Of a stretch of DNA of 64,000 nucleotides, positions 3,310 to 25,291 are shown in pieces (position 1 is the stretch's first letter; each line of letters starts with the position of its first letter). The notes beneath the pieces are model-generated. The model saw only the letters and a list, made by a program, of their open reading frames with translations. It was not told the DNA's origin and did no database searches. The position numbers and the translations under genes were made by a program. This DNA comes from Rubrobacter indicoceani (lineage in GTDB: Bacteria > Actinomycetota > Rubrobacteria > Rubrobacterales > Rubrobacteraceae): the NCBI RefSeq assembly GCF_003568865.1, contig NZ_CP031115.1, positions 1-64,000 of the forward strand, given 5' to 3'.

Positions 3310-4478
3310 CCGAATTCTCGAGCGACCTCGGGCCTCCGCACATCCGCGCCCTGAGGCTGGTGAACTTCCGGAACTACCGGGAGGCGATGGCGTACTTCGG
3401 GCCGGGGCTGAACATCGCGGTGGGAGAGAACGCCCAGGGCAAGACAAACCTGCTGGAGGCGATCTCCTTTGCCATCTCCGGCTCGTCCACCCGAACCTCG
3501 ACGGACTCCGAGGTCGTGCTCTGGAACGCAGACTTCGCCCGCGTCGAAGGTCGCGTCGCCCGCCCCGAGGGCGACGAACGGAAGATAGCCGTCGGTTACG
3601 CACCCGGCCAGAAGAAACGCATCAAGGTGGACGACGCCCCCGAGAAGTCCCTTGCCAACTACGCTGCGGGCGGGGCGGGGGTCAGAGCGATAACCTTTTT
3701 CCCGGACGACCTCCGCATCGTCAAGGGAGCGCCCTCCGACCGCCGGGAATTCCTTGACGCGCTGCTTTCGGCGCTCCGCCCGACGTACGCCAACACCGTC
3801 GGCGAGTACGCCAAGGCCGTGCAGCAGCGAAACCACCTCCTGCGCCGGATACGCGACGGTTACTCTTCCGGCAAGACCCTTGAGACCTGGGACAGGAAAG
3901 TCTCAGACCTCGGAAAAATCGTCCTTGAAGGCCGTGAGCGGGCGATGCCGCACCTCGACCGGCACTTCGCTTTGTCCATGAGGGACCTGTACGGCCCCGA
4001 GAAGGCCGCCGTCACCTATTCCGGTACCGCGACACCGGACGACTATTCCGAAGCCCTCAGAACGGCTCAGAGCGCGGACATCGAACGCGGCACCACAAGC
4101 GTCGGGCCGCACCGGGACGACCTGAAGCTGGCGCTCGGCGGGGTGGATCTGAACGTCTACGGTTCGCAGGGGCAGCAGCGGCTCGCGACGCTGGGTTTAA
4201 AGTTCGCCGCAAGGGAATATGCCCGGGGGGAAGTCGGGGAGGATCCCATACTCCTCATGGACGATGTCATGAGCGAGCTGGACGAACGCAGGCGGGAGTA
4301 TCTGGCCGAGTACTTCCTCGACAGTTCGCAGGCGATAGTCTCCACGACGAACCTTGAGTACTTCGGGGCGGAGACGCTCGGGCGTTCGCGGGTTCTGCGC
4401 ATATCCGACGGTCGAATAACGTCGGGCGCGACGGCTCGCGAGGATGGCGGCGCAACCGGCTTCCGGCGCGGAGCCTGA
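3306..4478 (+). CDS. recF: DNA replication and repair protein RecF
   Basis: RecF is an SMC-like ATPase that helps load RecA at gaps through the RecFOR pathway. The 390-residue protein has Walker A GENAQGKTN near residue 40, the ABC-type signature region (VGPHRDDL) near 262 and Walker B ILLMDDVMSELDERR near 315. The N-terminal strand IRALRLVNFRNYR is typical. The TTG start overlaps the stop of the S4 gene by 4 nt. No dciA (DUF721) gene follows, although in many Actinobacteria that gene lies between recF and gyrB. Confidence 0.96.
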   Translation: MTEFSSDLGPPHIRALRLVNFRNYREAMAYFGPGLNIAVGENAQGKTNLLEAISFAISGSSTRTSTDSEVVLWNADFARVEGRVARPEGDERKIAVGYAPGQKKRIKVDDAPEKSLANYAAGGAGVRAITFFPDDLRIVKGAPSDRREFLDALLSALRPTYANTVGEYAKAVQQRNHLLRRIRDGYSSGKTLETWDRKVSDLGKIVLEGRERAMPHLDRHFALSMRDLYGPEKAAVTYSGTATPDDYSEALRTAQSADIERGTTSVGPHRDDLKLALGGVDLNVYGSQGQQRLATLGLKFAAREYARGEVGEDPILLMDDVMSELDERRREYLAEYFLDSSQAIVSTTNLEYFGAETLGRSRVLRISDGRITSGATAREDGGATGFRRGA

Positions 4479-16385: not shown

Positions 16386-17726
16386 TTACTTCAGAAGGTC
16401 TCTCAACACGGCACGAATTTTGACGCTCAATGCCAGAGTAGCTTCTGCATCTTTCTGCCCTTTACGGACGACACCAAAGTTGAAGCTGAATCCGAGTCTA
16501 GACAAGGTCTGGAAGTGACTGGAAACATCTTTCGCTTTTCTATAATAATCATCCAGATATTCGAAAAGATTTCTATCAAGCGAAGAAGCAATAGTCGCCT
16601 TGTTGCGCTCCCATTCAGCAGTTTCGAGCTTGCCTAGTTCAGTTACTCGCCCGTTCTCAGTGCTCACAGGTCCGATTTCTAGATTTTTGACTCGACTCAG
16701 GATCTTCTCGTTAGAGTTCATCTCTCTTTCTATTAGTATCAGCGGCCCTTTATATTGGTCGAAGATATTAACCACTGTCGTGTCGCTGAGTCTAGCTACC
16801 AACGCTTGTACAAACTCCATTGATCCTTGTGGATTGCCGCCGTGGTGTGCACGCTCAATAACGCTTCCTTGCGAGTCAAGGATAACTAGCAGAAAGCTTT
16901 CCAATGGATCTGACCCTTCTACAAACGATCGCACACCTTCGGAGTTAATATCTGCGAAAGCTTGTACGAAGTTTGCTGAAAACAAGTTCTTAGTTGTATC
17001 GTATTGCATAAAGTACTTCAGGTTGTAGTCTACTCTGCTTTGCTCAGGATGCTTTGAGTTGTAGATAACCATGAAAATCGGTTTGTCCGATTGGTGTGCC
17101 GTTCTTAGAGCTTGTTTCACATCTCTGTAGACTGTGCCTTTGAAATACGTGCTTATATCAACTTCATCTATACCGGAAGAGATCAAGAGTTTGCCTTCAA
17201 TGGGGCCTTTTTTGGAGCTTAGCAAATCGTGCATTTTGATTGCCAAGTCTTTTGAGAACGTTTTTCTTAGCTCCTCACGAGTGGAAAAATTTCCCACAAG
17301 CCCTCTCTTATAAAATGCTCTCTTTGCATTCCTTAGTGCTGTAAGTTGGTCTGGATCTATTGTGCTCGGAGAGGTTTCTACATTCGAAAAATACAGCATT
17401 ACAGGTTTGCCTGAACTAATAAACCTTTCTATCTCCTCAATAGTTCCAGACTGCTCATTTTCTGTAGGTGCTCCGATACGTGTCCAGAAAACGCCCACAA
17501 GGAGATCACAACTGTCTACTAATCTGTCGTTGATTAAACTCTGCGGAGAGCCGCTTAAGTCCGGTATAGAATCTCTCTCCCATTTGACAGTTTGTAGAAC
17601 GGTCTGTACATAATTGGAGTTCTGAGCGTTCCAAGAATCTATTTCGTCACTAACGATCGCTCTTTCATCTGGGACGTCGGACGGAGATGCTACCAACACC
17701 CGGTACGTCAAGGCACTAAATGGCAA
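16386..17726 (-). CDS. DUF4062-domain protein with thioredoxin-like middle domain
   Basis: The N-terminal part (TYRVLVASPSDVPDER, then DLLVGVFWTRIG and SGTIEEIERFISSGKP) is a DUF4062 domain, a TIR/nucleotide-binding-like fold often found with defence and signalling genes. The middle third (KPIFMVIYNS through a long alpha/beta stretch) looks thioredoxin-like but lacks a CxxC pair. The C-terminus is helical. The gene is clearly AT-richer than its neighbours and lies just beyond the 3' end of tRNA-Gly. The TTG at 17726, behind AGAGGTG, fits the domain start; a TTG at 17795 would add 23 residues. Its function is not known. Confidence 0.85.
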   Translation of the reverse strand: MPFSALTYRVLVASPSDVPDERAIVSDEIDSWNAQNSNYVQTVLQTVKWERDSIPDLSGSPQSLINDRLVDSCDLLVGVFWTRIGAPTENEQSGTIEEIERFISSGKPVMLYFSNVETSPSTIDPDQLTALRNAKRAFYKRGLVGNFSTREELRKTFSKDLAIKMHDLLSSKKGPIEGKLLISSGIDEVDISTYFKGTVYRDVKQALRTAHQSDKPIFMVIYNSKHPEQSRVDYNLKYFMQYDTTKNLFSANFVQAFADINSEGVRSFVEGSDPLESFLLVILDSQGSVIERAHHGGNPQGSMEFVQALVARLSDTTVVNIFDQYKGPLILIEREMNSNEKILSRVKNLEIGPVSTENGRVTELGKLETAEWERNKATIASSLDRNLFEYLDDYYRKAKDVSSHFQTLSRLGFSFNFGVVRKGQKDAEATLALSVKIRAVLRDLLK

Positions 17727-17858
17727 GCGTTCACCTCTATAGATTGAACCTACTTCAGATGGCGAGTGCAGCGTAATTATGGTGCGAGAAATCAAAGTTC
17801 GGAACCTTGTCGTCTCAAAGTTTCGGTTGGGGTAAATAATGCTGCGGATACCGGAAAG

Positions 17859-18498: not shown

Positions 18499-19407
18499 TC
18501 AGAGAAGAACCTTCAGGACTTCCAGGGCGGCGAGGTCGCTGCTCTTGGCCTCCACCATGATGTCCGCGCCTCCCTCCGGCGTGCCGTAGAGGGCCGACAC
18601 GAGGCGTTCTGTGTCTTCGGGGCGGACGAACTCGTCGTGCGCCCCGGCCCTTTTGTCCGGATTCTGGCTTGAGAGGTGGATCTTCGGCCTTGAGTTCCGG
18701 CCTCTTGTTTTCCAGGTGGATATGGCAAGGGCCACCGCTTCTTTGTAGGGCAGGCCGCCGGAGAGAAAGCCGTGATGGAAAACATCCAGCACCATCGGCA
18801 CGCCGAGCCGCCGCGAGGCTTCGAGCGTCTCGGGGGTGGACCAGATCCTCTCGTCGTTCTCGAGCGCGAGGTAGCGAAGCACCGCCGTCTCCGGCAGGAG
18901 AACCGCCAGCAGGCGTTGTATTGTGGCTTTGCGGTCGCCGTATGCGCCGCCCACGTGAAGGACCATCACGCCGTCCTCCGCGCCGAGCAGGTCGAGAAGC
19001 TGCGCCGTGTACCGCAACTCCCACAGGCTTCTCTGACTGACCTCCGGGTTCGGGCTCGCCGGGGCAACAAACTGGCCGGGGTGCATGCTCAGCCTCACGT
19101 CGAGCGACCTTGCAAGGTCTCCGACCTCTCTTATCTCCTCGCCGTGTTCTTCAAGCCAGTTGTAGGGGAAGTCCGGGTGAGAGGCGAACGGGACAAAGCT
19201 CTGGCCGACCCTGAACAGCCGGAACCCTCTCTCTGCGCTCCAGCGGAGGATCTCCCTAAGCTCCGAGACGTTTCTCTTTACGAGGCCCCGCAGCTTCTCC
19301 CGGTCGGCTACGCTCTTCAGCCGCAGGGTGTGGTTCGTGTTCATCCCGAGGGTCAGGTTGCGTGTCGTGTACCCGATCCGGAACGCGGGTTCGCCAGGTA
19401 AGTCCAT
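18499..19407 (-). CDS. uvsE: UV DNA damage endonuclease UvsE/UvdE
   Basis: UvdE nicks DNA 5' to pyrimidine dimers and (6-4) products, opening a light-independent repair route. The 302-residue protein has the TIM-barrel family pattern: IGYTTRNLTLG near 12, RVGQSFVPFASHP near 66, RLSMHPGQFV near 104, HVGGAYGDR near 152, LENDER near 181 and DVFHHG near 208. The metal-binding His and Glu residues are in place. It converges on the NUDIX gene. The -10-like TAGTCT ends 6 nt before the ATG. The enzyme is typical of radiation-tolerant taxa such as Deinococcus and Bacillus, and fits Rubrobacter. Confidence 0.94.
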   Translation of the reverse strand: MDLPGEPAFRIGYTTRNLTLGMNTNHTLRLKSVADREKLRGLVKRNVSELREILRWSAERGFRLFRVGQSFVPFASHPDFPYNWLEEHGEEIREVGDLARSLDVRLSMHPGQFVAPASPNPEVSQRSLWELRYTAQLLDLLGAEDGVMVLHVGGAYGDRKATIQRLLAVLLPETAVLRYLALENDERIWSTPETLEASRRLGVPMVLDVFHHGFLSGGLPYKEAVALAISTWKTRGRNSRPKIHLSSQNPDKRAGAHDEFVRPEDTERLVSALYGTPEGGADIMVEAKSSDLAALEVLKVLL

Positions 19408-20854: not shown

Positions 20855-21661
20855 ATGAATGCAATAAGTGGCGACCGCGTACCCTTGACCGGGAGAACCA
20901 CAATAGTTACCGGGGCTTCGAGCGGTATCGGGGAGGCGACGGCCCGGGAGCTTGCCCGGCTCGGGGCTTCGGTGGTGCTGGCGGCCCGCGACGGGGGCAG
21001 GCTGCGCGCTCTTGAGGCCGAAATCTCCGCGAGCGGGGGAGACGCGACGGTTATCGAGACGGATGTAACGGACCGGGCTTCCGTAGAGGCGATGGTCGCG
21101 GTGGCGGGCAAACGGTACGGTGGGGTCGATTTCCTGGTGAACAACGCCGGGATGGGGCTGTCGGGGCGCGTCTCGGAGCTTAGAGCCGAAGATGTCCGCC
21201 ACGTCTACGAGGTCAACGTCCTCGGGGTGTTGAACTGTGTTCAGGCGACGCTGCCGCACCTGTCGGCGGGGGGACGCATAGTGAACGTCTCGTCGGTGGT
21301 CGGCATGAGGTCCATCCCGATGGTCGGCGGTTACTGCTCGTCCAAGTTCGCCCTGAACGCCCTGACGGATGCCCTTCGCGTCGAGGTTGCCCTGCGGGGC
21401 ATACACGTAACGAGCGTCTACCCCGGCACGACCCGGACGGACTTCCGGGAGAACGCCCGTCGGACGGGCGGCGAGAAACGCGGCTGGCGTCCGTCCGGGG
21501 TGCCGCCGGAGAAGGTCGCGAAAACGGTGTCGCGGGTGCTGGCGGCGAGAAAGCCCCCGAGGGACGCCTACGTGTCCTTCACCGACCACCTGTTTATCGT
21601 TGGGGTCTCGCTTTTCCCCGGCCTGACGGACGTTGTTCTCCGTCTCTGGGCCAGGGGCTAG
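20855..21661 (+). CDS. Short-chain dehydrogenase/reductase
   Basis: The 268-residue protein is a classical SDR: the cofactor motif TGASSGIGEA near residue 20, NNAG near 96, and the active-site Ser and YCSSK (Tyr/Lys) near 150-168, then PGTTRTDF near 188. The AARD stretch at the end of the second strand suggests NADP(H). The substrate is unknown. A -10-like TAACTT lies 7 nt before the ATG, and a repeated 25-bp element stands just upstream. The next gene starts 5 bp after the stop. Confidence 0.9.
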   Translation: MNAISGDRVPLTGRTTIVTGASSGIGEATARELARLGASVVLAARDGGRLRALEAEISASGGDATVIETDVTDRASVEAMVAVAGKRYGGVDFLVNNAGMGLSGRVSELRAEDVRHVYEVNVLGVLNCVQATLPHLSAGGRIVNVSSVVGMRSIPMVGGYCSSKFALNALTDALRVEVALRGIHVTSVYPGTTRTDFRENARRTGGEKRGWRPSGVPPEKVAKTVSRVLAARKPPRDAYVSFTDHLFIVGVSLFPGLTDVVLRLWARG

Positions 21662-21665
21662 AGGG

Positions 21666-22289
21666 TTGGACTTCGATGCGGGGGCCGTGGCCCGTTTCCG
21701 TCGCTACCGCAAGCACGCTGATGCAACGCTCGGTGACATGCGGCTCGCCGAAGAGGCCGCCCGCGCTTTCTGCGAGCGGTTCTTCGAGGAGCTGGAATAC
21801 TGCACCCGGTACGCAAACGAGGCCGGGTTCGAGGCGAGTACGGACCGCTCCGAGAGACGGATGCGTCTGAAGCTCTCCGCCGCAGAAGGGGCGGGCGCGG
21901 AGGTGGTGTTCGCCCGGCTTGAAGGCGCGGCTCACGAAACCGAAGAGTTTCTTCTGCACGAGACGCTGAGCCGCCACACCCTGCCCTCCGAGGGGTATTC
22001 GGGAAGGGTACTCGGGTGGGCCCCGCCGGAAGAGGAGCCGTGCCAGACCTTCTCCGTCTACCGCGACGGTTCGTGGCGTACGACAGGTCTGCTGGTCGAG
22101 AGGTCCCGCGGAAAGACAGGTGATCCAAAGGAAGTCCTGAGGGGTTTCTGTCTCAGGATACTCGGGCGGGTCGTGGACCTCTGCGCCCCGACCGACGGCG
22201 TGGGAAGGGTCTGGAGAACGGAAAAATACAGGCTCTCCGAGTACGGACGCGGCGCAGAGCCGCCCGTCGAGACCCGCTGGCTGAAGTAG
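21666..22289 (+). CDS. Hypothetical protein following the SDR gene
   Basis: I recognise no family in this roughly 207-residue soluble protein. It is rich in Arg and Glu with an amphipathic helical first half (AEEAARAFCERFFEELEYC) and a mixed second half ending in VETRWLK. It has six Cys with no clear metal motif. TTG 21666 lies 5 bp after the SDR stop, so the pair is probably an operon; an upstream in-frame start at 21633 would overlap the SDR gene. It converges on the beta-CASP gene. Confidence 0.72.
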   Translation: MDFDAGAVARFRRYRKHADATLGDMRLAEEAARAFCERFFEELEYCTRYANEAGFEASTDRSERRMRLKLSAAEGAGAEVVFARLEGAAHETEEFLLHETLSRHTLPSEGYSGRVLGWAPPEEEPCQTFSVYRDGSWRTTGLLVERSRGKTGDPKEVLRGFCLRILGRVVDLCAPTDGVGRVWRTEKYRLSEYGRGAEPPVETRWLK

Positions 22290-22317: not shown

Positions 22318-24837
22318 TTACAGCACCGTTCGGACGGTTTCGCCGACCGTTGGGGTGTGGATCTTGTGCTGCGGGGCAAGTTTAAACGCGAGGTCGCTGA
22401 TACGCCGGCGGGAGCCGTGGATCAGGATGATCTGCCTTGGCGAGAGCCGTTTCGTTATGCTGAGAAGGTCGCCCTGGGTGCAGTGGGCTGCGAAGTTCAC
22501 CTTCTCGACCCGCCAGCCTTCTTCGCCCGAGGGAAGCGGCATATAGGCCGAGGAAGCGTTAGACGGCAGGATAACGGCGTTTTTCGGGTCGTTCTCCAGT
22601 CGCTTGCGGTAAAACGCGCTTGCCCCACCCTGCATCGTAACGGGGCTTGCGATTATGGCGCACGGGCTGGTCAGGATGCGCTCCCGCGCGCTGTCGTCGT
22701 TGGCGACGGCGCGGATGTTCTCGGAGAAGAAAACCTCGCGCGGGTTTGACTGCTGAAGGTAGGGTTTCATGTAGCCGAGCTGTTCGGCGTAGAGCCGTTC
22801 GGAGGTCGTTACCACCGAGCCGTCCACGTAGATAAACACGTCGTCTTCCAGTTCCTTCGAGAAGTGCTTGAGGGCGAGTATGATCTCCTGCGCCTGGCCG
22901 AGCGCGTAGGTCGGGATCAGAACCGAGCCCTCCTTTAAGAGCGTCGTGTCGTTTATGACCTCTATCATGGTCCTCACCGAGTCGGCGAACGGCTGGGCCT
23001 GCTGGTCGGCGAGCGTCGCCTCCATGATGAGCAGGTCTATGTCATGCACATCGGGCAACTTCGCCGAGGGGATCGAGAAATGGTCTTCAAGAGATATGTC
23101 TCCGGTATGGAAGACCCGTGCCGAGCCGTTCGTGAGCAGGACGCTCGCCGCCCCGAGGAGGTGCCCGCTCTCGGTCAGCCGGATCTTTGTATCCCCGATT
23201 GAGAAGTCTTTGCCGAACTCCATCGGGATGAGCCGCTTCTTTACCTCGTGGATTGGCACGCCGCCCGGTATGCTGCCGCCCATCGCGGCATGGTCGTTCA
23301 GGGCGTTGACGATGAGCCTCGCTGACGGCGGGGTACAGTAGATCGGGAGGTTCGGACGGTCCCGGACAAGCACGGGGAGCGCGCCGCAGTGGTCGAGGTG
23401 CGCGTGGGTTATAACGGCGGCGTCGAGCTTCTCCGCGCTCGCGAACATCGGGGCCGCCGGACCGCGACCGTCGGGCTTTATCCCGGCGTCTATGAGTATC
23501 CGGGATTTTTCGAAGTCCAGCAGGTGGCTGCTCCCGCCTACTTCTCCGGCCCCGCCAAGCGCCCTGAAGGAGAGCGAAGGCCTCGGTCGGACGCTGATGG
23601 CGGCGGCCTTCTCCCTGACCTCCAAGGCCCCGGTCCCCTCGACGGTCGCCACTTTCCGCTCGACCGGGGGCTTCTGTCGGCTACCTTGAGAGGACTCCGG
23701 ATCTTCTGCTTCGTCGTCGGTGCGCGAGCCGCCACGACTCTCCGGCGAACGTCCGTTTCTGAGATCTTCGTGGGTCTGCAGAACCCGTCCCATAAACTCC
23801 AGCAGCTTCGCCGTCTGAGCGGCGTGTTCTATTGAAGCGGGCATGGCGGAGACTTCGTTCTTCACCGCCCGGACCACAAGGTCTCCGAAGCCTCTGTCCG
23901 TAAAGCGGGCGTTCTGAAGCGCGTTCCGGATCTTGTCCCGCTCTTTTGTAACGGAGTCGAGTTCTCCGTGCAGTTCGTCGACCCGCTCGGCGGCCCTGGA
24001 GTATGCTTTCCGCTCACCCTCCAGCGCGCGTTCTAGCTGCTCGCCCCGGTGTTCGAGGCCGGAGAGCCGGCCCTCAAGAGAGGATCGCTCCTGAAGAATA
24101 GTGCTGACCCTCTCCTCGGCCTCCCGCGACCGCGAGTTGTGGCCCCGGAGCTGCTCCGTGAGGGATTCGACCTCTTCCGCCAGAGCTCTGGCCCTTTCCG
24201 CCGCGGCGCGCTGCTGAAAGGAGAGGCGTTCGTTCTCCCTGCGGGTAAGCTCCAGTTCCGACTCCAGCTCCCGGACCCGGGCGTCCTTTGTGGCCCGGTC
24301 TGCCTCTTTGACGCTTTTGTCGGCGTACCTCTCGACCAGCTCCCGCACCACCTCTTCCGGCGGCGGCTCTTCGTTAAGGGCAGCGGCCAGCAGCAGACCC
24401 TCCGGGGTGTGCTGCTGCACGGACTCGTCGAGGTTGTCCTGCGTCAGAGCGCCTGCGGCCTCCCTGAGTTCCGCTGGGACCTGAACCTCTATCGCCGTCC
24501 TGAACGCATCCCAGGCGGCCTGGTCCTGCATGACCCGCTTCGTTACCTCCCGTATGACGAGGGCGTTGTTGCTGCGCCTCGTAAGGGCATCGGCCTGCAT
24601 GCTCCTCGGCAGGAGCACGTCCTCAAGCCCGGAGACGTTCCGGCACAGGTCGAAAAGAGCCTTGCGGGTATCGAGCCGCCCGAGACGTTCCTTGATCAGG
24701 GCCTCCGGCAGGCTTCCAACCCTCATGGAGAGGATCTCGTCCGAGGTGTTCCGCTCCGGTGAATCTCCCTCCGGCGGGGGTTTCTCCCGCTCTTCTTCCT
24801 TTCTACCGCCTCCAGCTCTGGGTGTAAGATCTGACAT
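22318..24837 (-). CDS. Coiled-coil / metallo-beta-lactamase beta-CASP fusion protein
   Basis: The C-terminal 420 residues form an MBL/beta-CASP domain as in RNase J and CPSF73-like nucleases: HAHLDHCG (478-485), ESGHLLGA (His 559), HTGD (Asp 580), motif A LLIMEATLAD (Glu 606), a motif-B-like TYALGQAQE (643-651), FAAHCTQGD (His 785) and a final HG (807). Metal ligands look intact. The N-terminal 400 residues are unusual: a helical region (40-170), a long coiled coil (about 165-310) and a Ser/Gly/Pro linker (360-420). No standard RNase J beta-CASP protein has such an extension. ATG 24837 follows GAGGGAG. Confidence 0.9.
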   Translation of the reverse strand: MSDLTPRAGGGRKEEEREKPPPEGDSPERNTSDEILSMRVGSLPEALIKERLGRLDTRKALFDLCRNVSGLEDVLLPRSMQADALTRRSNNALVIREVTKRVMQDQAAWDAFRTAIEVQVPAELREAAGALTQDNLDESVQQHTPEGLLLAAALNEEPPPEEVVRELVERYADKSVKEADRATKDARVRELESELELTRRENERLSFQQRAAAERARALAEEVESLTEQLRGHNSRSREAEERVSTILQERSSLEGRLSGLEHRGEQLERALEGERKAYSRAAERVDELHGELDSVTKERDKIRNALQNARFTDRGFGDLVVRAVKNEVSAMPASIEHAAQTAKLLEFMGRVLQTHEDLRNGRSPESRGGSRTDDEAEDPESSQGSRQKPPVERKVATVEGTGALEVREKAAAISVRPRPSLSFRALGGAGEVGGSSHLLDFEKSRILIDAGIKPDGRGPAAPMFASAEKLDAAVITHAHLDHCGALPVLVRDRPNLPIYCTPPSARLIVNALNDHAAMGGSIPGGVPIHEVKKRLIPMEFGKDFSIGDTKIRLTESGHLLGAASVLLTNGSARVFHTGDISLEDHFSIPSAKLPDVHDIDLLIMEATLADQQAQPFADSVRTMIEVINDTTLLKEGSVLIPTYALGQAQEIILALKHFSKELEDDVFIYVDGSVVTTSERLYAEQLGYMKPYLQQSNPREVFFSENIRAVANDDSARERILTSPCAIIASPVTMQGGASAFYRKRLENDPKNAVILPSNASSAYMPLPSGEEGWRVEKVNFAAHCTQGDLLSITKRLSPRQIILIHGSRRRISDLAFKLAPQHKIHTPTVGETVRTVL

Positions 24838-24982
24838 AGCGACTCCCTCTGCTAATGAGAAATTGAATGTTGACTGCTCGTTTCATACGCTTCAATTTTA
24901 TCATGGCCCCTGTCCGGACCCGCCGATTCGGACCGCGAGCCTGAGGTTCCTCAACTGCTGTAGAATCCCGGGGTGAACCAGC

Positions 24983-25291
24983 TTGAAACACAAACCTGAA
25001 ACGGAAAAGCGGGGTACAGAGTTGCCGGAGACATCGAGCAGAGACCAGATAGACGGGATCGTAAAGGTACTGGCGCGCTCGCCGGGGCGGTTTCCGGTCC
25101 TGATCGTCGAGGCCTCCGGGCGGCTCCTTGCGACGCACCACGAGACTTCCTACGATCTTGGAGCGGGCAAACCCGTCGAACGCAGCTGGATAAGGGACAA
25201 CGCGATAGGTCGCCACAGCTTTATCGAGGTGGACCCGCCCGAAGAAGTTTCAAGCAGAGACCTCCTGAGCTACGCCGCCGGCGAACTCTAG
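24983..25291 (+). CDS. Small hypothetical protein
   Basis: A 102-residue charged protein with a short central hydrophobic stretch (RFPVLIVEASGRLLA); no family is recognised. TTG 24983 has no clear ribosome binding site; a TTG at 25022 (residue 14) is an alternative. A -10-like TAGAAT (24961-24966) is followed after 6 nt by a GTG in another frame that opens only 8 codons, so the 5' end is uncertain. Its stop overlaps that of pknB in a shared CTAG. Confidence 0.6.
   Translation: MKHKPETEKRGTELPETSSRDQIDGIVKVLARSPGRFPVLIVEASGRLLATHHETSYDLGAGKPVERSWIRDNAIGRHSFIEVDPPEEVSSRDLLSYAAGEL

What the first reader, a model, noticed from the sequence alone, without database searches (positions are those of the whole stretch)
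22318..24837. Beta-CASP nuclease-like domain fused to a 400-residue coiled-coil N-terminus
Seen: intact MBL/beta-CASP motifs (HAHLDHCG 478, His 559, Asp 580, Glu 606, His 785) preceded by about 400 residues that are mostly helical and coiled-coil (165-310), joined by a flexible linker. RNase J and CPSF73-like proteins are usually 450-650 residues with no such N-terminal extension. Inference: the coiled coil may dimerise the enzyme or attach it to ribosomes, DNA or a structural partner. It could be a distinct RNA-processing or DNA-associated nuclease class.
Basis: partly seen in the sequence, partly recalled or inferred. Interest (0 to 1): 0.65.

Follow-up and report, generated by a model that had tools for sequence, protein, structure and literature searches.

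The report
Coiled-coil RNA-cutting enzyme of Rubrobacteraceae
Bacteria of the Rubrobacteraceae family carry a probable RNA-cutting enzyme of the type that trims messenger RNA ends in our own cells, permanently fused to a rigid rod and a helical head that I could match to nothing known, so it is a real and lineage-specific variant of a familiar enzyme whose partner and job are still unknown.

Summary
It is one 839-residue ORF on the minus strand (22318-24837). In front lie a helical head (43-158), a 149-residue coiled-coil helix (161-309), a conserved helical hairpin (310-360) and a variable linker.

The fusion is not a misassembly. It occurs in all 36 Rubrobacteraceae genomes searched (a few cut by contig ends, one frameshifted), in the same gene neighbourhood. 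The coil has the same length in all 34 full-length proteins, and its heptad period is 3.5. The N-terminal part matches nothing outside the family: not the rest of the phylum, Planctomycetota, plasmids, Pfam or the PDB.

The catalytic half is not RNase J. It belongs to the CPSF73/aCPSF1/TTHA0252 side. It groups with a bacterial branch (Deinococcus, Nostoc, Herpetosiphon, Planctomycetota) whose members often carry other accessory domains. It has lost that branch's GYxDEESPGR segment.

Best reading: a dimeric RNA-processing or decay ribonuclease tethered through its head to an unknown partner. I rate it a new variant of a known kind. The dimer, substrate and partner are inferred.

The parts
22318..24837 (-). 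Whole gene: 839-aa coiled-coil beta-CASP metallo-hydrolase (stop codon included)
   Evidence: 36 of 36 family genomes have it
24718..24837 (-). Residues 1-40: variable, low-confidence tail (starts MSD; MSDPIP in most relatives)
24364..24711 (-). Residues 43-158: conserved all-helical head domain, 70% mean pairwise identity; 43-120 basic (net about +4), 121-158 acidic (net about -9)
   Evidence: no Pfam hit, no PDB sequence hit outside the coil
23911..24357 (-). Residues 161-309: single long coiled-coil helix, period 3.5, no indel in the family
23758..23910 (-). Residues 310-360: conserved two-helix segment (RFTDxGFGxLLxRAVKNEV...EFMxxVL), 76% mean pairwise identity
23584..23757 (-). Residues 361-418: variable flexible linker (27% identity, 38-79 aa long) with an acidic patch in most members
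22321..23583 (-). Residues 419-839: MBL / beta-CASP / RMMBL catalytic region, 84% mean pairwise identity
23383..23406 (-). Motif 2, HAHLDHCG (478-485)
22414..22422 (-).
24895..24903 (-). Probable promoter element: extended -10 TGATAAAAT about 57 bp upstream of the start codon, conserved between genera
   Evidence: alignment of seven upstream regions; not found by the generic sigma-70 scan

Best explanation
A Rubrobacteraceae-specific RNA nuclease of the CPSF73/aCPSF1/TTHA0252-like beta-CASP group. SHOWN by sequence: a complete two-metal active site of the RNA type, an obligate N-terminal extension built of head, coil and helical hairpin, and vertical inheritance in one fixed gene neighbourhood. 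INFERRED: the two-zinc MBL site cuts single-stranded RNA (endo- and/or 5'-3' exo-, as in TTHA0252) between the MBL and beta-CASP lobes. Two chains pair through the heptad coil into a parallel dimer about 20 nm long. The flexible acidic linker lets each catalytic domain swing from the end of the rod. The paired, partly basic heads hold the enzyme on a fixed partner such as RNA, the ribosome, RNA polymerase or another decay factor. In function it would be a tethered RNA processing or decay enzyme working beside RNase J and RNase Y in a family that has no RNase E/G. That plays the role the KH domains play in archaeal aCPSF1: bring substrate to the blade.
For: Catalytic identity: best profiles are aCPSF1 TIGR03675 202 bits against RNase J TIGR00649 43 bits; best solved relatives are aCPSF1 140, TTHA0252 129 and Cas14 119 bits against RNase J 45 bits. 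All ten active-site residues are present, with His in motif C. TTHA0252 has 5'-3' exo-RNase and probable endo activity, and its disruption changes about 200 genes in log phase (PMC4229858). The coil has constant length and period 3.5 and a helix with pLDDT about 90. The head (70%) and hairpin (76%) are nearly as conserved as the catalytic part (84%), while the linker is 27%: the N-terminal modules are under selection as folded units. Fusion in 36/36 family genomes, with conserved synteny. RNase E/G is absent from 25/25 family genomes but present in 14/16 genomes of other families, while RNase Y and RNase J are present.
Against: No substrate, oligomer or partner was tested. The first half of the coil (165-235) shows no significant 3.5 period on its own (228/1000 shuffles), so only 236-310 is statistically firm. 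Three nearly universal segments of the relatives are changed in every family member looked at: GRAQE to GQAQE, SAHAD to AAHCTQ, and GYxDEESPGR lost; these could reduce or retune activity. RNase Y and J are present, so the enzyme need not fill an RNase E gap, and that absence is one evolutionary event rather than independent evidence. One sister species has a frameshift at residue about 160.
Confidence: 0.6

Rival explanations
1. A bacterial counterpart of archaeal FttA/aCPSF1: it couples to RNA polymerase through its N-terminal rod and ends transcription by cutting the nascent RNA.
For: aCPSF1/FttA is the best profile and structure hit, and that family also carries an N-terminal accessory module. 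The protein is universal and single-copy in the family.
Against: No KH domains are detected and the N-terminal model is all-helical. Rho is present in 24 of 25 family genomes, so there is no missing terminator to replace. The tree places it with a bacterial branch, not with the one aCPSF1 row.
Confidence: 0.12
2. A DNA-associated or DNA-repair nuclease (SNM1/Artemis-like), attached to DNA or to a structural partner by the coiled coil, fitting a radiation-resistant lineage.
For: The coil hits SMC and Rad50 coils weakly. A ligase-associated exonuclease profile matches at 48 bits. A very weak structural similarity to the HNF-1A DNA-binding region, Z about 3, covers residues 32-114.
Against: Motif C is His807 as in the RNA enzymes. 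All the close solved relatives are RNA enzymes. The SMC/Rad50 hits lie only in the coil and are composition-driven.
Confidence: 0.1
3. A catalytically weakened or regulatory paralogue: the coil and head do the work, and the nuclease is slow or has become an RNA-binding scaffold (like CPSF100 beside CPSF73).
For: GRAQE, SAHAD and GYxDEESPGR, nearly invariant in relatives, are changed in every Rubrobacteraceae member compared, on a long stem branch of 1.75 changes per site.
Against: All ten metal-binding and catalytic residues are kept in the eight family members compared. The catalytic half is the best conserved part of the protein at 84%; loss of function normally relaxes it.
Confidence: 0.15
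4. The fusion is an assembly or frame artefact of two neighbouring genes.
For: In the sister species G001 the head (about 1-160) and the rest lie in two different frames.
Against: A single open frame in dozens of independent genomes from the rest of the family. The G001 break lies in a CCGCCCCCC run and may be a sequencing error or a single-species mutation.
Confidence: 0.01

Closest known systems
Archaeal aCPSF1 / FttA (MTH1203, PH1404; TIGR03675)
   Same: MBL + beta-CASP core with the same ten active-site residues; an N-terminal accessory module; best-scoring family (202 bits)
   Different: N-terminus is head + coiled coil + hairpin, not two KH domains; score far below the family cut-off of 580 bits; differs in GQAQE, AAHCTQ and the missing GY...G segment
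Thermus thermophilus TTHA0252 (bacterial beta-CASP RNase)
   Same: Bacterial CPSF73-like RNA nuclease core, 129 bits, RNA-type motif C
   Different: TTHA0252 is 431 residues with no extension; compact proteins of this kind in other Actinobacteria and Planctomycetota form a separate branch in the tree (TTHA0252 itself was not in the tree)
Bacterial 'GYQDEESPGR' beta-CASP branch (Deinococcus, Nostoc, Herpetosiphon, Planctomycetota; annotated 'MBL fold metallo-hydrolase')
   Same: Nearest branch in the tree (97/95 support); members often carry extra domains
   Different: Their extra domains are elsewhere (mostly C-terminal; N-terminal in Nostoc); only Rubrobacteraceae have the head-coil module, and only they have lost the GYxDEESPGR segment
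RNase J (TIGR00649)
   Same: MBL/beta-CASP superfamily, HxHxDH
   Different: 43 bits against a cut-off of 400; the genome has a separate RNase J-like protein at C1:1428633; no RNase J C-terminal domain
Type VII CRISPR Cas14 (MBL/beta-CASP)
   Same: Similar beta-CASP core (134 bits)
   Different: Cut-off 800 bits not met; conserved housekeeping neighbourhood; Cas14's extra part is C-terminal

Membership tests
MBL/beta-CASP nuclease superfamily | Motifs 1-4 plus A, B and C in one MBL domain with an inserted beta-CASP domain | tested here: met
   Pfam Lactamase_B_2, Beta-Casp and RMMBL above cut-off; all ten residues
RNA-type (CPSF73/TTHA0252/aCPSF1) beta-CASP group | His in motif C, and closer to this group than to RNase J or SNM1 | tested here: met
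   His807; 140-106 bits to aCPSF1, TTHA0252 and YSH1 against 45 bits to RNase J; tree
RNA-type (CPSF73/TTHA0252/aCPSF1) beta-CASP group | Cuts RNA | not testable with these tools
   needs purified protein
aCPSF1/FttA | Score above TIGR03675 cut-off | tested here: not met
   202 of 580 bits
aCPSF1/FttA | Tandem N-terminal KH domains | tested here: not met
   No KH hit; the N-terminal model has no strands (head pLDDT about 60-88)
RNase J | Score above TIGR00649 cut-off | tested here: not met
   43 of 400 bits
RNase J | C-terminal domain after the MBL domain | tested here: not met
   The protein ends 32 residues after motif C
Cas14 (type VII CRISPR) | Score above NF045584 cut-off | tested here: not met
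   134 of 800 bits
Coiled-coil protein | Heptad periodicity beyond composition | tested here: met
   Period 3.50; 2/1000 shuffles over 165-310 and 5/1000 over 236-310; first half alone not significant
Parallel dimer through the coil | Two chains in solution | not testable with these tools
   only single-chain prediction was available
Known fold for the head (43-158) | Clear structural match | tested here: inconclusive
   No Foldseek hit with E <= 0.001; only middling Z in the second look; the head was not predicted alone

The most novel reading that the evidence does not exclude
The head-coil module docks this CPSF73-like nuclease on RNA polymerase or the ribosome, giving Rubrobacteraceae a cleavage-coupled RNA 3'-end or decay pathway that resembles archaeal FttA or eukaryotic CPSF73 but arose independently in bacteria, in a lineage that lacks RNase E/G.
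Probability: 0.12. Interest if true: 0.75.

Novelty: new variant of a known kind. Interest (0 to 1): 0.42.

Why it matters
CPSF73-like nucleases end and process transcripts in archaea and eukaryotes, while the bacterial members of this group are almost unstudied. A universal, single-copy, single-lineage member with its own rigid docking rod is a clean system in which to ask what bacterial CPSF73-like enzymes do and how accessory domains aim them. It also marks a whole bacterial family that has this enzyme and no RNase E/G.

Tried and rejected
Search of the N-terminal half in Pfam, also split from the coil: nothing. N-terminal profile against the PDB by sequence: only coil-to-coil hits, GCN4 and myosin chimeras. 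NCBIfam and PADLOC hits (SMC, Rad50, EzrA, JetC, LmuB, PbeC and others) fall only in the coil and were rejected as compositional; the LmuA hit at 443-491 is just the MBL core. Fold search of the N-terminal model: no E <= 0.001; the VIA second look gave only helical-bundle-level Z. N-terminal half in viral contigs and plasmids: none; phages hold only distant catalytic relatives. The full-length AlphaFold model is poor in the catalytic half (8 sequences, pLDDT often under 50) and was not used for function. An apparent 406-residue N-terminal extension in L105 (Planctomycetota) was rejected: the real start is MKLRFWGAADT and the rest is a chance open frame in GC-rich DNA. The pknB operon idea was rejected: a conserved divergent gene (orf102) separates the gene from pknB, and it has its own conserved promoter. 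Third item was mistyped and is not used.

Full report
WHAT IS THERE. The ORF lies on the minus strand, window 22318-24837, 839 residues from an ATG with a good ribosome-binding sequence. Pfam finds Lactamase_B_2 446-630, Beta-Casp 649-760 and RMMBL 776-824. Aligned to solved enzymes and read with the residue list for MTH1203 (PMC3095777), the active site is complete: Asp450 (motif 1), His478/His480/Asp482/His483 (2), His559 (3), Asp580 (4), Glu606 (A), His785 (B), His807 (C).

THE N-TERMINAL HALF. With 34 full-length relatives the protein divides into a variable tail 1-40, a head 43-158 (mean pairwise identity 70%), a coil 161-309 (60%), a helical hairpin 310-360 (76%), a linker 361-418 (27%, 38 to 79 residues long) and the catalytic part (84%). 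The coil has exactly the same length in all 34. Its hydrophobicity peaks at a period of 3.50, reached by 2 of 1000 shuffles over 165-310 and 5 of 1000 over 236-310; the first half alone is not significant. A rod of about 149 residues would be about 22 nm long (1.5 A per residue, general knowledge). The head is basic in 43-120 (mean net charge +3.9) and acidic in 121-158 (-9.0).

IS THE FUSION REAL AND HOW FAR DOES IT REACH. It is found in 36 of 36 family genomes in the first survey (several cut by contig ends) and in 39 family genomes in the phylum survey. In 296 genomes of the phylum the N-terminal profile finds the family and, outside it, only two weak hits confined to the coil. Outside the family 12 genomes of the phylum have a catalytic relative, in open frames of 467-563 codons, without the extension. 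In 199 Planctomycetota genomes 23 have catalytic relatives and no match begins before model position 353. No N-terminal match occurs in viral contigs or plasmids. The gene neighbourhood is fixed: orf218 and an SDR gene on one side; a small divergent gene (orf102), then pknB, pbpA, rodA and a PP2C phosphatase gene on the other. The window's closest relative, G001, has the head in a different frame from residue about 160, at a CCGCCCCCC run. That is a single case and may be a sequencing error.

WHICH KIND OF BETA-CASP. Profiles: aCPSF1 202 bits, Cas14 134, RNase J 43. Solved structures: aCPSF1 140, TTHA0252 129, Cas14 119, YSH1 106, RNase J 45 bits. It is the only Beta-Casp Pfam hit in its genome; a separate RNase J-like ORF lies at C1:1428633. 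A maximum-likelihood tree of 36 catalytic domains puts the Rubrobacteraceae (100/100) with Nostoc, Herpetosiphon, Deinococcus and some Planctomycetota proteins at 97/95, apart from the compact proteins of other Actinobacteria and Planctomycetota. The stem branch is long (1.75). That sister branch shares a GYxDEESPGR segment, which the Rubrobacteraceae have lost; they also changed GRAQE to GQAQE and SAHAD to AAHCTQ, all while keeping the ten active-site residues. Members of the sister branch often carry extra domains (Nostoc 226 residues N-terminal; Herpetosiphon and Planctomycetota about 300-400 C-terminal), so gaining an accessory domain is a habit of this branch, but this particular one is seen only here.

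HOW IT MOST LIKELY WORKS. Shown: an intact RNA-type active site, a conserved rod and head, a loose linker, vertical inheritance. Inferred: a dimer through the coil, RNA cleavage, and tethering by the head. TTHA0252, a bacterial relative, has 5'-3' exo-RNase and probable endo activity, and its disruption altered about 207 genes in log phase (PMC4229858). In aCPSF1 the N-terminal KH domains bind RNA and the enzyme works best as a dimer (PMC3095777). The head-coil module is the natural analogue. RNase E/G is absent from all 25 family genomes tested, while 14 of 16 genomes from other families have it. RNase Y (22 of 25, the misses in incomplete genomes) and Rho (24 of 25) are present. So this enzyme works beside RNase J and Y; whether it fills part of an RNase E role is open, and the co-occurrence is a single evolutionary event.

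EXPRESSION. The upstream regions share an extended -10 element TGnTAAAAT about 57 bp before the start codon, and orf102 diverges from the same intergenic region. The gene is therefore probably its own transcription unit, not the tail of the pknB operon, although a generic sigma-70 scan did not pick this element up.

LIMITS. Only Actinobacteria and Planctomycetota genomes, plasmids, phages and viral contigs were covered, so other coiled-coil beta-CASP fusions may exist elsewhere. The head was not folded alone. No paper in the library searched describes this protein, but subscription journals are mostly not held.

Noticed in passing
window 24983-25291 (+): A 102-aa ORF, divergent from the beta-CASP gene, is conserved at about 47-63% identity next to it in nearly all Rubrobacteraceae loci, with no Pfam match even at E 10.
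   Followed up: partly
window 21633-22289 (+): A 218-aa ORF convergent with the beta-CASP gene is conserved (45-58%) across the family, with no Pfam match.
   Followed up: partly
own genome and 24 family genomes: RNase E/G is absent from 25 of 25 Rubrobacteraceae genomes while 14 of 16 genomes of other families in the phylum have it.
   Followed up: partly
L013 (G001), near locus position 3580-3590: In the sister species the head domain is out of frame with the rest at a CCGCCCCCC run near residue 160: natural frameshift or sequencing error.
   Followed up: partly
window 16386-17795 (-): A 469-aa protein with a weak DUF4062-like N-terminus and partial PADLOC hits (PDC-S60, PD-T4-6): a possible defence-related gene.
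   Followed up: no
L101-L104 and L099: Planctomycetota and Herpetosiphon relatives carry 300-400 residue C-terminal extensions on the same catalytic core, of unexamined nature.
   Followed up: no
window 18499-19407 (-): UvdE-type UV endonuclease gene (PF03851, E 1.6e-50) a few kb away.
   Followed up: no
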